From Oscillospiraceae bacterium (GTDB taxonomy: Bacteria; Bacillota; Clostridia; Oscillospirales; Oscillospiraceae): a stretch of DNA of 40,578 nucleotides. Both the position numbers and the translations under genes were made by a program. Below are positions 4,926-8,303 of the stretch, piece by piece. Each line of letters opens with the position of its first letter. The stretch's first letter is position 1. The stretch covers positions 1 through 40,578 of the forward strand of contig JAFYVL010000080.1 in assembly GCA_017549125.1 (NCBI GenBank), written 5' to 3'. The notes below the pieces were generated by a model. It made no database searches. It was not told where the DNA came from and saw only the letters and a program-made list of their open reading frames with translations.

Positions 4926-4936
4926 AGGAACGGATG

Positions 4937-6055
4937 ATGAAAAACAAGATTTTGCGTGGTTTTGCGCTTTTGCTGGCGTTGCTGACCTTAGCCGGCTGCG
5001 GTGCGGCAACACAGGTTGGTACACAACCGGTTACCGAAGCAGTGGCAACCGTTGCAACCACGAATCCTGTGGAGACTACCGCACCCACCGGGACGCTGAA
5101 GGTCCATTTCATTGATGTGGGTCAAGCGGATGCGGCTCTGTTGCAATGCAATGGGGAAAATATGCTCATTGACGGTGGCAATGCGGAAGATTCCAATTTG
5201 ATGTACACCTATCTGAAAAAGCAGAATGTGACCCATCTGGACTATGTGATCGGTACCCATGCCCATGAGGATCATATTGGCGGTCTGTCCGGTGCGTTGC
5301 GCTATGCCTCTGTGGACACAGCCTATTGCCCGGTGACCGATTACGACAGCAAGGTATTTCGGAATTTTGCCAGCAGCGTAGAAGCACATAATACCACTTT
5401 GCAGGTTCCCGATGTTGGCACGACCTTCAGTTTGGGCGAAGCCCAGGTGGAGATCCTGGCGGTGAATACTACCGATGATACCAATAATTCTTCCATCGTT
5501 CTGCGTGTGGATTACGGACAGGTTTCTTTTCTGTTTACCGGCGATGCAGAAAGGGAAGTGGAGCAGGTTCTGCTGGATCGCGATGCCAACCTGTCAGCTA
5601 CAGTGCTGAAAGTAGGTCACCATGGTTCTGACAGTTCCACGACCTATCCCTTCCTGCGAGAGGTCATGCCTCAGTACAGCGTGATCAGCGTGGGCAAGGA
5701 CAATTCCTACGGCCATCCCACCGAAGAGACCATCAGCCGTCTGCGGGATGCAGATACCCAGCTGTTCCGTACAGATCTGCAGGGTGATATTATTTTTACT
5801 ACCGACGGAAAGACCGTGCAGGTCACCGTATCTCGCAACCAGAACGCAGATACCTTCGATTTGTCCCAAGAGGCAACACAGCCCCCCACTGTGGTGATGG
5901 AATTCTATATTTTGAACACCAATTCCAAAAAATTCCATGAGGAACATTGTCCAAATGCCGAGAACATCAGCGATCAGAACCGACAGGCGTACACAGGCTC
6001 CCGGGAGGATCTCATTGCCCAAGGCTATGAACCCTGTAAAAACTGTAATCCCTAA
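4937..6055 (+). CDS. lipoprotein with ComEC-like metallo-beta-lactamase domain and C-terminal Cys/His tail
   Basis: An N-terminal signal with lipobox LTLAGC (lipidated Cys about residue 21) shows a membrane-anchored extracellular protein. After a Thr-rich spacer (about 25-50) comes a metallo-beta-lactamase fold like the hydrolase domain of ComEC/Rec2: FIDVGQADAALL, THAHEDHIGG (metal ligands), FLFTGDAE, and VGHHGSDSST. The last ~45 residues hold a small domain with HEEHC and CKNC that resembles Ada-type zinc-binding modules attached to secreted nucleases. A role in extracellular DNA hydrolysis is plausible but inferred. Two ATGs (4934, 4937) follow AAAGGA; spacing favours 4937. The gene is 11 nt downstream of the DUF362 gene. 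Confidence 0.83.
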   Translation: MKNKILRGFALLLALLTLAGCGAATQVGTQPVTEAVATVATTNPVETTAPTGTLKVHFIDVGQADAALLQCNGENMLIDGGNAEDSNLMYTYLKKQNVTHLDYVIGTHAHEDHIGGLSGALRYASVDTAYCPVTDYDSKVFRNFASSVEAHNTTLQVPDVGTTFSLGEAQVEILAVNTTDDTNNSSIVLRVDYGQVSFLFTGDAEREVEQVLLDRDANLSATVLKVGHHGSDSSTTYPFLREVMPQYSVISVGKDNSYGHPTEETISRLRDADTQLFRTDLQGDIIFTTDGKTVQVTVSRNQNADTFDLSQEATQPPTVVMEFYILNTNSKKFHEEHCPNAENISDQNRQAYTGSREDLIAQGYEPCKNCNP

Positions 6056-6059
6056 ACAA

Positions 6060-6085
6060 ATGCCCTGCGGTTAACCGCAGGGCAT
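6060..6085. terminator. palindromic terminator between convergent genes
   Basis: ATGCCCTGCGG (6060-6070) is separated by TTAA from CCGCAGGGCAT (6075-6085). It lies 5 nt after the stop of the + strand lipoprotein. The TAA stop of the minus-strand iron-sulfur gene (6073-6071) is in the loop. Flanking T-runs are weak, so it may act mostly as an RNA end-stabilising hairpin. Confidence 0.65.
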
Positions 6086-6679
6086 AATTTCGCCTTTGGG
6101 GGAGATAGTAACCACTTCCAACGGAATGTTTTTGCCGCTGTTGGCGATGGCTTTTTCCACAGCGAAAGACAGACCGCCACAGCAGGGAACGGTCATTCGG
6201 GTTACGGTGATACTTTTAATATCATTTTCTGCAAAAATCGTAGTAAGTTTCTGGGAATAATCCACACCGTCCAATTTGGGACAGGCAATGATGGTGATCT
6301 TGCCATCCATAAATCGGCTGTGGAAATTGCCGTAGCTATAGGCGCAGCAATCCGCAGCGATTAGCAGATCTGCCCCTTGATACCAAGGTGCGCTTACCGG
6401 CAAAAGCTTCAGTTGTACCGGAAAATTCTTGAGGCATCCGGTCGCTTGTTTAGCGGCCAGTACCGCAGCTTCGTTGTAGGCCGGGGCTTCTCTCTCTTCA
6501 AAGGAGATTGCACCGGTGGGACAGGCGGGCAGACAGTCTCCTAAACCGTCACAGTAATCTTCCCGCAGGAGGGTGGCCTTGCCATTTACCATGCCGATAG
6601 CACCTTCGTGACAGGCTGTGGCGCAAAGGCCACAGCCGTTACATTTATCATTATCAATGGTGATGATCCGTCTGATCAT
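6071..6679 (-). CDS. 4Fe-4S ferredoxin-type protein
   Basis: The 202-aa protein begins with a dicluster ferredoxin region. The first motif is complete, CNGCGLCATAC (CX2CX2CX3C, about 13-23). The second, YCDGLGDCLPACP (about 42-54), has Leu where the second Cys should be, so it has three ligands and could hold a 3Fe-4S cluster or none. The C-terminal part (about 105-200) contains ADCC, ACP and VPCCGG cysteine pairs, perhaps another redox site. From memory, proteins of this kind occur beside Crp/Fnr regulators and hybrid-cluster protein genes in Clostridia, but no hcp is present here. It overlaps the upstream zinc-ribbon gene by 4 bases (ATGA), so the two are coupled. Confidence 0.85.
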   Translation of the reverse strand: MIRRIITIDNDKCNGCGLCATACHEGAIGMVNGKATLLREDYCDGLGDCLPACPTGAISFEEREAPAYNEAAVLAAKQATGCLKNFPVQLKLLPVSAPWYQGADLLIAADCCAYSYGNFHSRFMDGKITIIACPKLDGVDYSQKLTTIFAENDIKSITVTRMTVPCCGGLSFAVEKAIANSGKNIPLEVVTISPKGEIMPCG

Positions 6680-6936
6680 GCGCTTTCACCTTTCTTTCGT
6701 TTTTGCATTTCGGCAATCTGCATCATATGCTCGTACATCTCGTCGCCTACGCATTTGCGAGCATATTTACACCATTGGACACAGCTGAGGGTATCGTTAT
6801 AGGCAACGAATCCGCATTTTTCGCAGGCTACCTCGGTATCAATGGAGAATAGTTCGATGATACTGCCGCATTGGGGACAGACCTTTTCGTGAATGGTTGG
6901 GGTTCTGGGTTTTCCTTGACAACTATCCATTAACAT
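6676..6936 (-). CDS. small zinc-ribbon protein
   Basis: The 86-aa product carries a zinc ribbon: VCPQCGS (about 20-26) and ACEKCGF (about 38-44), each CX2C. Two more cysteines follow, in the segment LSCVQWCKYARKCVG. I place the start at ATG 6936 because AAGGAGG ends 8 nt before it; a GTG at 6945 is part of the ribosome-binding site. It is the first gene of the minus-strand pair and is coupled to the ferredoxin gene. A metal-binding or electron-transfer helper role is inferred. Confidence 0.75.
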   Translation of the reverse strand: MLMDSCQGKPRTPTIHEKVCPQCGSIIELFSIDTEVACEKCGFVAYNDTLSCVQWCKYARKCVGDEMYEHMMQIAEMQKRKKGESA

Positions 6937-6949
6937 AGACAACACCTCC

Positions 6950-6978
6950 TTGACTTTCTATGAGAATTATAGTATGCT
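6950..6978 (+). promoter_or_regulatory. candidate promoter of the Crp/Fnr gene
   Basis: TTGACT (6950-6955) and TATGCT (6973-6978) are 17 bp apart. Transcription would start near 6985, so the palindrome at 6993-7008 would lie just downstream, where a bound regulator would block transcription. Confidence 0.45.
6966..6971 (-). promoter_or_regulatory. -10 box of the iron-sulfur operon (no clear -35)
   Basis: The minus strand reads TATAAT (6971-6966), predicting a start of transcription near 6959, about 23 nt before the ATG at 6936. No good -35 is found at 16-18 bp. The palindrome at 6993-7008 is centred at -41.5, where an activator would replace the -35. Confidence 0.6.
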
Positions 6979-6992
6979 GTCATCAAAAAGTA

Positions 6993-7008
6993 TGTTGAAT
7001 TTTCAACA
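6993..7008. promoter_or_regulatory. 16-bp palindromic operator for the Crp/Fnr regulator
   Basis: TGTTGAA-TT-TTCAACA is a perfect inverted repeat. It can also be read as TGTTGA-N4-TCAACA, the general shape of Crp/Fnr-family sites. It lies between the regulator gene and the divergent iron-sulfur operon. Its centre (7000.5) is 41.5 bp from the predicted minus-strand start (6959), the classical class II activation position. Confidence 0.65.
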
Positions 7009-7021
7009 GAAATGGAGCAAT

Positions 7022-7681
7022 ATGAAAAATTATATGGAAATGCTTCAAACTTGTCCTCTGTTTGCAGGTATCATGCCGGATGAGTTGTTGGGGCTATTGG
7101 ATTGCCTGGGTGGTTCTAAGCTTTATATGCCGAAAGGCCAGCCTATTTTCCGGGAGGGAGACCCGGCTACCCATCTGGGCATTGTTCTGGAAGGCGCAGT
7201 GCGGATGGAGCGGCAGGATTATTACGGCAACCGAAGCATCATTGCCCATATTGGACCCGGTGAATTGTTTGCAGAGACCTATGCCTGCGCCGGCGTGCAG
7301 GCATTGCCAATCAGTGTGGTGGCAGATGAGAATAGCCACGTGTTGATTGTGGATTGCTGCCGCATTACGGTCAGCTGCTGCAATGCCTGTAGCTTTCATA
7401 GCCGGATTATTCATAATCTTTTGTATCTGGTGGCAACGAAAAATATCCTTTTTGATCGAAAATTACAGGTGACAGCCAAGCGTACCACCCGGGAAAAGTT
7501 GATGGCATATTTAATGGATCAGATGAAGACCCAGGGAAACCCGTCCTTTACGATTCCCTATGATCGGCAGGAATTGGCGGATTATTTGGAAGTGGATCGC
7601 AGTGGCCTGTCTGCGGAAATTTCCAAGCTTCGCAAAGAGGGTGTACTGGAAAGTCATAAAAATTATTTTCGTATTTTGTGA
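7022..7681 (+). CDS. Crp/Fnr family transcriptional regulator
   Basis: The 219-aa protein has an N-terminal cyclic-nucleotide-binding-like beta-roll (about 10-120, with IFREGDPATHLGIVLEGAV), a dimerisation helix and a C-terminal winged helix (about 165-219, with RQELADYLEVDRSGLSAEISKL). A cysteine cluster, DCCRITVSCCNACSFH (about 118-133), sits at the start of the long helix and could sense a metal, Fe-S cluster, NO or redox state; this is inference. I prefer the ATG at 7022 (GGAG 4 nt upstream), which gives normal family length and leaves the palindrome at 6993-7008 in the leader. The divergent iron-sulfur operon is the likely target. Confidence 0.85.
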   Translation: MKNYMEMLQTCPLFAGIMPDELLGLLDCLGGSKLYMPKGQPIFREGDPATHLGIVLEGAVRMERQDYYGNRSIIAHIGPGELFAETYACAGVQALPISVVADENSHVLIVDCCRITVSCCNACSFHSRIIHNLLYLVATKNILFDRKLQVTAKRTTREKLMAYLMDQMKTQGNPSFTIPYDRQELADYLEVDRSGLSAEISKLRKEGVLESHKNYFRIL

Positions 7682-7689
7682 GGTGTCCC

Positions 7690-8004
7690 ATGGCGAAAAT
7701 CTATCATAAACTGGTTCGGGATCGGATTCCCGAGATCATCGAAGCTACCGGCAAAACCTGTAAAACCCAGATTCTATCTCAGGAGGAATATTTGCAGCTG
7801 CTGGACGAAAAACTGACAGAGGAACTGGCAGAGTACCAGGAAAGCAAATCCCTGGAGGAACTGGCGGATCTGTATGAGGTTATGGCGGCTGTGGTAGAAG
7901 CCAGAGGCTGGGATCTGTCCCAATTGGAGGCTGTCCGTCTGGAAAAGAAAGAAAAACGCGGCGGCTTCCGCCACCGCATCCTTTTGTTGGAAGTGGAAGA
8001 GTAA
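7690..8004 (+). CDS. MazG-like nucleotide pyrophosphohydrolase (COG4997 type)
   Basis: The 104-aa all-alpha protein opens with KLVRDRIPEII, a hallmark of the small phosphoribosyl-ATP-pyrophosphatase/MazG-like group. It carries the acidic metal-binding pattern EKLTEELAEYQ...EELADLYEVMAAV (EExxE...D). It probably hydrolyses non-canonical or surplus nucleoside triphosphates. The ATG at 7690 is preferred to an in-frame GTG at 7678 that overlaps the previous stop; GTGAGGTG gives the ribosome-binding site. It follows the regulator gene by 8 nt, so the two are probably cotranscribed. The substrate is not determined. Confidence 0.8.
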   Translation: MAKIYHKLVRDRIPEIIEATGKTCKTQILSQEEYLQLLDEKLTEELAEYQESKSLEELADLYEVMAAVVEARGWDLSQLEAVRLEKKEKRGGFRHRILLLEVEE

Positions 8005-8012
8005 AACCCTTC

Positions 8013-8303
8013 CTACATAATGAAATACAATGCTAATGTTAAGATAGCATTGTTTCTATCCTCTTCGCAATCGCCTGCCATGAGCAGCAATAATAGCACT
8101 ACGATCAAATCCCCGGTGTCAAAATCCTTAGGTAGCAGCTGCCGCAGGAAACCGGAGGGCTGCCTGTGCGTTTCCTGTTTGAGACAGGGTCTGGGCGGCT
8201 CCGGTGGAGGCGGCTGTGGCTTTTGGGGCGGTGTCTGATGGGGCTCTGCCATCCGGTTTCGGCGGTATGAGCCGTCCGCTTGGGGTACATATCGGTTATA
8301 CAT
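8013..8303 (-). CDS. small protein: Pro-rich linker plus hydrophobic C-terminus (unknown)
   Basis: I do not recognise this 96-aa product. It starts with MYNRYVPQADGSYRRNR, then a proline-rich stretch (about 24-40), a basic middle and a very hydrophobic run LIVVLLLLLMAG (about 67-78). That run is followed by CEEDRNN and a second hydrophobic end (about 86-96). It is the third gene of a tight minus-strand operon, 4 nt after the stop of the second. The hydrophobic segments point to membrane or surface association. A sporulation link is possible in Clostridia but nothing here proves it. Confidence 0.65.
   Translation of the reverse strand: MYNRYVPQADGSYRRNRMAEPHQTPPQKPQPPPPEPPRPCLKQETHRQPSGFLRQLLPKDFDTGDLIVVLLLLLMAGDCEEDRNNAILTLALYFIM
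8027..8053 (+). terminator. possible terminator of the MazG-like gene
   Basis: ACAATGCTA (8027-8035) pairs with TAGCATTGT (8045-8053), followed by TTTCT. It lies in the 3' coding end of the convergent minus-strand gene. The T-tract is short. Confidence 0.35.

What the first reader, a model, noticed from the sequence alone, without database searches (positions are those of the whole stretch)
6966..7008. Palindrome at exactly -41.5 of an iron-sulfur operon facing a Cys-rich Crp/Fnr regulator
TGTTGAA-TT-TTCAACA (6993-7008) is a perfect inverted repeat. The minus-strand -10 TATAAT (6971-6966) predicts +1 at 6959, and the palindrome centre is 41.5 bp upstream, the class II Crp/Fnr position. That promoter has no -35, as expected for an activated promoter. 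For the + strand gene the same site lies just past the predicted start, so binding would repress the regulator itself. The regulator's cysteine cluster next to its dimer helix suggests sensing of redox, NO or metal. Geometry is seen; regulation is inferred.
Basis: partly seen in the sequence, partly recalled or inferred. Interest (0 to 1): 0.72.

Follow-up and report, generated by a model that had tools for sequence, protein, structure and literature searches.

The report
HcpR-type switch between opposed promoters
A short DNA palindrome lies at a conserved, fixed distance from two opposed predicted promoters, between a gene for a Crp/Fnr-type regulator and a pair of genes for cysteine-rich and iron-sulfur proteins; the regulator is predicted to bind it, which would likely turn the iron-sulfur genes on, probably under nitric-oxide stress, and its own gene off.

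Summary
The palindrome TGTTGAATTTTCAACA (6993-7008) is real, unique as an exact match in the held genome, and a conserved operator rather than a chance match. A search with promoter and palindrome letters but no gene knowledge found 138 places in 120 of 400 family genomes, against 5 for the reversed pattern. At 108 of the 138 a Crp/Fnr homologue lies on one side and zinc-ribbon-like, ferredoxin-like (frdX-type) or hcp genes on the other. Outside the searched letters, the minus-strand -10 and a pyrimidine-purine start (110 of 116) sit exactly where -41.5 requires. A plus-strand promoter puts the operator at about +9 to +24 of the regulator's own transcript. The recognition helix co-varies with operator base 6: Gly195 with A6 (16 of 16; 0 of 169 others), Arg198 with C6 (32 of 32; 0 of 153), also in a second, class-wide sample. 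Gene company, and less firmly the fold, point to HcpR, the nitrosative-stress regulator, in a variant with a conserved Cys28/Cys119/Cys123/His126 set. Binding, start sites, signal and autorepression are untested.

The parts
6993..7008 (.). Operator TGTTGAATTTTCAACA; predicted binding site of the adjacent regulator; centre 7000.5
   Evidence: conserved as TGTTG-N6-CAACA in relatives
6966..6971 (-). -10 element TATAAT of the iron-sulfur operon
   Evidence: Sequence; conserved at this offset: 5-6 of 6 in 78 of 117 sites, 4 or more of 6 in 20 of 20 operator-bearing pairs found without the pattern; T-12, A-11, T-7 at 99-100%
6959..6959 (-). Predicted transcription start of the iron-sulfur operon (operator centre at -41.5)
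   Evidence: Pyrimidine-purine at this position in 110 of 116 sites; inferred, not mapped
6989..6994 (-). Place of a -35 (CATACT, 2 of 6 matches to TTGACA); degenerate, with a conserved T/G-A-C triplet; its bases 6993-6994 belong to the operator
6950..6978 (+). Predicted promoter of the regulator gene: TTGACT, 17 bp, TATGCT; predicted +1 about 6985
   Evidence: at the same offset in pairs found without the pattern: -10 with 4 or more of 6 in 19 of 20, -35 with 4 or more of 6 in 14 of 20
7022..7681 (+). Crp/Fnr-family regulator, 219 aa, likely HcpR-type; start ATG 7022
   Evidence: PF00027 + PF13545; fold similar to P. gingivalis HcpR 9day among other Crp-family chains
7604..7615 (+). Codons of Gly195 to Ala198 in the recognition helix; Gly195 goes with operator base A6
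7103..7105 (+). Codon of conserved Cys28
   Evidence: 88% of 117, 58 of 68
7376..7399 (+). Codons of Cys119, Cys123 and His126, at the start of the dimer helix; possible metal, Fe-S or thiol sensor together with Cys28
   Evidence: 88, 87, 87% of 117; 59, 61, 59 of 68; all four residues in 100 of 117 and 57 of 68; dimer helix 124-151 in the model
6676..6936 (-). 86-aa cysteine-rich, zinc-ribbon-like protein; first gene of the operon (longest frame begins at 6945)
6071..6679 (-). 202-aa 4Fe-4S ferredoxin-like protein (frdX-type by gene company); second gene
   Evidence: PF12838, PF00037
6060..6085 (-). Terminator-like hairpin (11 pairs) at the end of the operon

Best explanation
The palindrome is predicted to be the single operator of the adjacent Crp/Fnr regulator, a likely HcpR-type protein, which would bind it as a dimer to activate the minus-strand zinc-ribbon/ferredoxin operon from the class II position (-41.5) and at the same time block its own promoter. 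Shown by sequence: the palindrome; its conservation; the two back-to-back promoter-like elements, whose -10 hexamers are one base apart, so that RNA polymerase could hardly use both at once; the fixed spacing; and the co-variation of the recognition helix with operator base 6. Inferred: that the protein binds here; that the signal is NO or a related nitrosative or redox stress; that the signal acts through the conserved Cys28/Cys119/Cys123/His126 set; and that binding at about +9 to +24 represses the regulator. In this picture the bound regulator would move RNA polymerase from the regulator's promoter, which has its own -35, to the operon's promoter, which lacks one and needs help.
For: Architecture pattern: 138 places in 120 of 400 family genomes against 5 reversed-pattern places. 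108 of 138 have both a regulator homologue and a zr, fd or hcp homologue on the other side, the nearest within 150 bases of the operator centre in 101 of the 108; 9 have the regulator only, 3 a partner only, 18 neither. 20 of 21 divergent pairs found by protein similarity, window included, carry the operator with at most 2 mismatches; in these 20 the minus -10 matches 4 or more of 6 in 20 and the plus -10 in 19. Minus -10 conserved although not searched for. Pyrimidine-purine at the predicted +1 in 110 of 116; at most 49 of 116 within five bases on either side, 71 of 116 six bases away next to the -10. Arms co-vary at position 6 (82 of 116 complementary; shuffles 41.1 +- 4.6, largest 58 in 2000 shuffles) and at position 7 (82; 55.7 +- 4.6, largest 71). 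Gly195 with A6 in both arms: 8 of 8 and 0 of 109 others in the family set, 8 of 8 and 0 of 60 in the class set; Arg198 with C6: 12 of 12 and 0 of 105, 20 of 20 and 0 of 48. Of the variable alignment columns, recognition-helix residue 195 is the most informative about base 6 by z-score on both arms. Same-genus locus L100 has the operator before zr-fd-hcp. In C. difficile, NO induces hcp and frdX about 206- and 220-fold in the wild type and not in an hcpR mutant (PMC12915319, passages).
Against: No binding, transcript or stress data exist here. On well-supported branches only 3 (Arg198/C6) and 2 (Gly195/A6) pairs are independent; all agree but p is 0.25 and 0.5. Arm position 8 does not co-vary (39 of 116 against 49.6 by shuffle) and position 1 does not (68 against 66.3); the shuffles do not remove relatedness. 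The plus -35 and parts of the plus -10 were search letters, so their conservation in the 116 sites is partly by selection; in pairs found without the pattern the plus -35 matches 4 or more of 6 in only 14 of 20. In the class sample the background is higher: reversed pattern 19 against 111 places (my sums), and 20 of 90 examined places have no regulator homologue. The window has no hcp beside it; the only PF03063 protein found in the held genome is CO-dehydrogenase-like, the assembly being 71.5% complete. One divergent hcp-facing pair (L029) has no operator, and two tandem arrangements (L008, L236) show none of the right form in the stretch looked at. The Met68 heme ligand of P. gingivalis HcpR seems not to be kept (register inferred).
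Confidence: 0.78

Rival explanations
1. The palindrome is an operator for the adjacent regulator, but only the iron-sulfur operon is regulated; the site inside the regulator's leader has no effect on the regulator gene.
For: The overlap with the regulator's leader could simply follow from two close promoters; there are no autorepression data, and Desulfovibrio HcpR1 is NO-induced (PMC5701242, passages). The plus promoter has a -35 of its own.
Against: Site at +9 to +24 and -10 hexamers one base apart make interference likely; in pairs found without the pattern the plus -10 is at the same offset in 19 of 20.
Confidence: 0.15
2. The minus-strand operon starts at the other promoter-like site, AGGACA-17-TATAAT (7057-7029), so that the palindrome lies in its leader and acts as a roadblock or RNA element.
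For: It is the best-scoring of the five promoter-like sites in 6000-8200, 10 of 12.
Against: Not conserved: at the same offset only 2 of 117 sites reach 9 or more of 12, the window being one of them, and 115 score 7 or less. No Rfam match in 6000-8100. Arm position 7 co-varies, which a hairpin with a two-base loop would not allow.
Confidence: 0.05
3. The palindrome is bound by another regulator (for instance a CRP, FNR or Rex protein), not by the adjacent one.
For: Many Crp/Fnr family proteins bind similar palindromes (recalled).
Against: The adjacent regulator's helix residues 195 and 198 follow operator bases A6 and C6 without exception in 185 regulator-site pairs; the site also occurs beside this kind of regulator where the partner differs, e.g. 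an nrfA-like or an ABC transporter gene.
Confidence: 0.04
4. The palindrome is a chance match.
For: With 2 mismatches such a palindrome is expected about 1.7 times in this 40-kb window.
Against: 138 against 5 places in 400 genomes with the gene context repeated.
Confidence: 0.01

Closest known systems
HcpR, second type (HcpR2 of Clostridia, Bacteroides and others; C. difficile HcpR with frdX-hcp; PMC1274295 and PMC12915319, passages read)
   Same: Crp/Fnr regulator beside frdX-like ferredoxin and hcp genes; one palindromic site in the upstream region; recognition-helix residue equivalent to CRP 181 is Ser, as Rodionov et al. state for C. difficile and C. thermocellum; a divergent regulator/ferredoxin operon is also reported for C. 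tetani.
   Different: Operator TGTTG-N6-CAACA instead of the common GTAAC-N4-GTTAC; base 6 goes with residues 195 and 198; a zinc-ribbon-like gene leads the operon; no hcp beside it in the window. Whether the published C. difficile or C. thermocellum motif equals this one could not be read (figure not held).
HcpR of Porphyromonas gingivalis (PDB 9day, 5v30; PMC12750200, passages)
   Different: 21% identity. In the profile alignment it has Met at Cys119, a gap over 120-123, Tyr at His126 and Ser at Cys28; its heme ligand Met68 falls on Arg64 here (register inferred).
FNR and CRP class II activation (recalled)
   Same: Site at -41.5 over a missing -35; helix positions equivalent to CRP 180, 181, 182, 185 in play.
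   Different: FNR cluster cysteines are N-terminal; here the conserved ones are at 28 and at the start of the dimer helix; half-site GTTG rather than TTGAT or TGTGA.
HcpR1 of Desulfovibrio (PMC5701242, passages)
   Same: NO-responsive Crp/Fnr protein that binds upstream of its own gene.
   Different: TGTGA-N6-TCACA site; its own gene is reported as NO-induced, not shut off.

Membership tests
Crp/Fnr superfamily | cNMP-binding-type sensor domain plus Crp-type HTH | tested here: met
   PF00027 58.3 bits and PF13545 37 bits, both over the gathering score; fold
HcpR | Gene linked to hcp and/or frdX-like ferredoxin genes | tested here: met
   fd and zr in the window; fd, hcp or zr opposite the regulator at 108 of 138 sites; zr-fd-hcp in same-genus L100. 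That this fd is an orthologue of named FrdX proteins was not tested
HcpR | Palindromic site upstream of hcp or frdX operon | tested here: met
HcpR | Common HcpR2 motif GTAAC-N4-GTTAC | tested here: not met
   Operator is GTTGA-N4-TCAAC; but HcpR with Ser at 181 are reported to have other motifs (PMC1274295), and Ser194 is present in 99% of 117
HcpR | Closest solved structure is HcpR | tested here: inconclusive
   9day_A has the best TM-score of the rows shown, but 4byy and 4ev0 rank higher by E-value and several GlxR/CRP chains by Z; by sequence 7t8o scores best, 9day third
HcpR | Response to NO through heme (P. gingivalis type) | not testable with these tools
   Met68 column is Arg64 here by alignment (register inferred), which speaks against the same ligand
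HcpR | Activation of its target operon | not testable with these tools
   Geometry only
FNR (4Fe-4S, N-terminal cysteines) | N-terminal cysteine cluster (recalled) | tested here: not met
   The first 27 residues hold one cysteine, Cys11, which is Cys in 30% of 117

The most novel reading that the evidence does not exclude
Across Clostridia a cysteine-sensing branch of HcpR works a one-operator switch: two back-to-back promoters with -10 boxes one base apart share a single site, so the same bound dimer recruits RNA polymerase to the iron-sulfur or hcp operon and evicts it from the regulator's own promoter. Operator specificity is written in two helix residues (Gly195 reads A6, Arg198 reads C6), and the signal is sensed at a Cys28/Cys119/Cys123/His126 centre instead of heme.
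Probability: 0.35. Interest if true: 0.7.

Novelty: new variant of a known kind. Interest (0 to 1): 0.55.

Why it matters
In the papers I saw, HcpR in Clostridia is known from comparative prediction and from one recent C. difficile study. This gives a precise, conserved promoter layout for such a system, predicts start sites to the base, and offers a link, exceptionless in 185 pairs, between two recognition-helix residues and one operator base that can be tested by simple swaps. It also marks a conserved cysteine/histidine set as a possible alternative to the heme sensor known from P. gingivalis HcpR.

Tried and rejected
Rival minus promoter at 7057-7029: not conserved. RNA element: no Rfam match in 6000-8100, and position 7 of the arms co-varies. 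A wider regulon in this genome: TGTTG-N6-CAACA has 11 exact places against 7 for the reversed pattern. Of the ten other than the window's, nine were fetched and printed (L004, L005, L081-L087) and one (C82:17031) was not. By eye seven of the nine (L004, L081-L083, L085-L087) lie in terminator-like hairpins; L084 was printed out of register because its locus is cut, so it was not judged; none of the eight judged has a clear -10 at the right offset. Two one-mismatch places (L002, L003) show none either. hcp in the own genome: the one PF03063 hit is CO-dehydrogenase-like, and I saw no such operator in the stretch before it. Coordinates of the structural model were not available in the Python box, so distances between the conserved cysteines could not be measured. 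Published motif of C. difficile/C. thermocellum HcpR: the figure is not held; 'GTTG' and 'CAAC' occur 0 times in the main text of PMC1274295, and the listings and passages I saw (searches; two returned nothing) do not show this operator. I do not claim that it is unpublished; RegPrecise may hold it. Identity of the 89-aa protein: no Pfam family, one NCBIfam match far below its cut-off, and the only name among the 120 homologues listed is 'hypothetical protein'.

Rows dropped before counts: of 138 family places the 18 with neither neighbour and the 3 without a recognisable regulator were left out of the logo (117 left, 116 distinct). Of 111 class-level places (my sum from the table) 90 were examined: 30 loci returned by the call and 60 that I chose from the rest, mostly better-looking ones plus seven that looked like chance; 21 were not examined, two of them (G000, G020) being in the family set already. 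70 of the 90 had a regulator homologue and 68 gave a protein of 150 residues or more. Partners were counted anywhere on the minus strand in up to 4.5 kb (the farthest nearest-partner is 1,770 bases off).

Full report
What is there. The window carries a divergent pair: on the plus strand a 219-aa Crp/Fnr regulator (ATG 7022; PF00027 and PF13545), on the minus strand an 86-89-aa cysteine-rich protein and a 202-aa 4Fe-4S ferredoxin-like protein, closed by a terminator-like hairpin at 6060-6085. Between them lies TGTTGAATTTTCAACA at 6993-7008. It is the only exact TGTTGA-N4-TCAACA in the held genome. Named relatives found by protein similarity include a Faecousia MAG and Anaerotruncus colihominis.

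More than chance. In the window alone the palindrome would not be remarkable. So I searched for the whole layout, TTGACT-N17-TANNNT-N14-TGTTG-N6-CAACA with at most 2 mismatches, without using any gene. In 400 genomes of the family it occurs at 138 places in 120 genomes; the reversed pattern occurs at 5 (the sums of places are mine from the table). By tblastn 108 of the 138 lie between a homologue of this regulator and zr, fd or hcp homologues (nearest one within 150 bases of the operator centre in 101), 9 have the regulator only, 3 a partner only and 18 neither. With 0 mismatches 32 of 33 have both. Independently of any pattern, 21 divergent regulator/partner pairs, the window included, were collected by protein similarity; 20 of them have the operator with at most 2 mismatches, the exception being L029.

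Promoter geometry. The logo of 116 distinct sites shows features that were not searched for. The minus-strand -10 at the offset of window 6966-6971 has T-12 99%, A-11 100% and T-7 100%. A pyrimidine-purine step falls on the base that makes the operator centre -41.5 in 110 of 116 sites; the neighbouring positions -42.5 and -40.5 have 3 and 1. The best other positions are 49 of 116 at -43.5 and 71 of 116 at -35.5, the latter adjoining the -10. At 17 bp upstream of that -10 the match to TTGACA is 1-3 of 6 in 112 of 116 and 4 in the other 4, though a T/G-A-C triplet is conserved. On the plus strand the -35 matches TTGACA at 5-6 of 6 in 77 of 116 and the -10 matches TATAAT at 5-6 of 6 in 89 of 116; these letters were partly in the search. 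In the 20 operator-bearing pairs found without the pattern, the minus -10 at the same offset matches 4 or more of 6 in 20, the plus -10 in 19 and the plus -35 in 14 (from the rows). From the plus promoter the operator lies at about +9 to +24. The two -10 hexamers are one base apart.

The arms are read as a dyad. Position 6 of the two arms is complementary in 82 of 116 sites against 41.1 +- 4.6 when arms are shuffled (largest 58 in 2000 shuffles), and position 7 in 82 against 55.7 +- 4.6; positions 1 and 8 show nothing (68 against 66.3; 39 against 49.6). The shuffles do not remove relatedness. Position 7 could not pair in an RNA hairpin with a two-base loop, so the symmetry fits a DNA-bound dimer.

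Which protein reads it. In 117 regulators next to the sites, the variable alignment column most informative about operator base 6, by z-score, is residue 195 on both arms; 198 and 200 follow on the left arm and 159 and 198 on the right. Residues 193-205 are the recognition helix in the model; 193, 194, 195 and 198 correspond by my alignment to CRP 180, 181, 182 and 185 (recalled numbering). Residue 195 is Gly in exactly the 8 regulators whose operator has A6 in both arms, the window included, and in none of the other 109. Residue 198 is Arg in exactly the 12 with C6 in both arms and in none of the other 105. I then tested this in genomes from the rest of the class: 101 of 391 genomes have the layout, with a higher background (reversed pattern 19 against 111 places, my sums). 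In 68 new regulator-site pairs from 90 of the 111 places Gly195 goes with A6 in 8 of 8 and 0 of 60, and Arg198 with C6 in 20 of 20 and 0 of 48. On a tree built without helix columns 190-204, Arg198 and C6 each need 8 changes and Gly195 and A6 each 3; on well-supported branches 3 and 2 independent pairs remain, all in agreement but too few for significance. This is the strongest evidence that the adjacent regulator binds the palindrome.

What it belongs to. The company of ferredoxin-like and hcp genes is that of HcpR. Rodionov et al. (PMC1274295, passages) describe HcpR2 next to hcp in Clostridia, motif GTAAC-N4-GTTAC, with other motifs where residue 181 is Ser (C. difficile, C. thermocellum), and a C. 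tetani ferredoxin operon facing an HcpR2 paralogue. Ser is at the equivalent residue 194 in 99% of the 117 here. In C. difficile NO induces hcp and frdX about 206- and 220-fold in the wild type and not in the hcpR mutant (PMC12915319, passages). In the same genus as the window, L100 has the operator in front of zr-fd-hcp; in G368 (L135) a second copy faces a protein whose first 300 residues match ammonia-forming nitrite reductase, below the model's cut-off for a whole protein. The predicted structure (mean pLDDT 89.6) has its best listed TM-score with P. gingivalis HcpR (0.80), although other Crp-family chains rank above it by E-value or Z, so the fold test is inconclusive.

Sensor. Cys28 (88%), Cys119 (88%), Cys123 (87%) and His126 (87%) are conserved among the 117 regulators, Cys89 in 71%; in the class set 58, 59, 61 and 59 of 68, and Cys89 in 37. 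All four of the first set are present together in 100 of 117 and 57 of 68. The window's Cys112, Cys113 and Cys120 are Cys in 24, 1 and 3 of 117. Cys119 and Cys123 lie just before, and His126 in, the dimer helix (124-151). In the profile alignment P. gingivalis HcpR has Met at 119, a gap over 120-123 and Tyr at 126, and its heme ligand Met68 (PMC12750200, passages) falls on Arg64 here (register inferred by me). A thiol, metal or Fe-S sensor is therefore more likely than the same heme site, but this is inference.

Mechanism proposed. When the regulator is active it binds the operator, takes the place of the missing -35 of the iron-sulfur operon and recruits RNA polymerase there (class II), while covering the start of its own transcript and competing for the adjoining promoter. 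Activation is supported by geometry and by the C. difficile precedent; autorepression rests on geometry alone, and Desulfovibrio HcpR1 is reported as NO-induced (PMC5701242, passages), so the direction could differ.

Limits. No wet data; unnamed, often incomplete genomes; held genome 71.5% complete; no hcp beside the window's pair. The operator may already be listed in RegPrecise, which could not be consulted.

Noticed in passing
L135 (G368:C31:20773 and 25387): Two regulator-operator copies lie 4.6 kb apart: one faces zr-fd-hcp, the other a protein matching ammonia-forming cytochrome c nitrite reductase below the model's cut-off.
   Followed up: partly
L106, L229, L230: Related regulators with the operator at the same promoter position face ABC transporter genes (for L106 a substrate-binding protein nearest SsuA, below cut-off, then a permease) instead of iron-sulfur genes; L123 and L233 face small membrane-type proteins.
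   Followed up: partly
L011 (G038:C135): A divergent zr pair has a changed operator, TGTTTGATTTCAAACA, still symmetric; its recognition helix was not examined.
   Followed up: no
window 4934-6055 +: ComEC-like metallo-beta-lactamase-fold protein converges on the iron-sulfur operon; the hairpin 6060-6085 lies at the junction of the two gene ends.
   Followed up: no
G000:C24:18714 and 18977, C50:2563, C61:3230 and 16528, C80:19565 and 20749: Seven other TGTTG-N6-CAACA places in the held genome sit inside hairpins that look like terminators (by eye).
   Followed up: partly
window 7678-8004 +: A 108-aa frame follows the regulator directly, its longest form overlapping the regulator's stop codon; no Pfam or NCBIfam match.
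   Followed up: no
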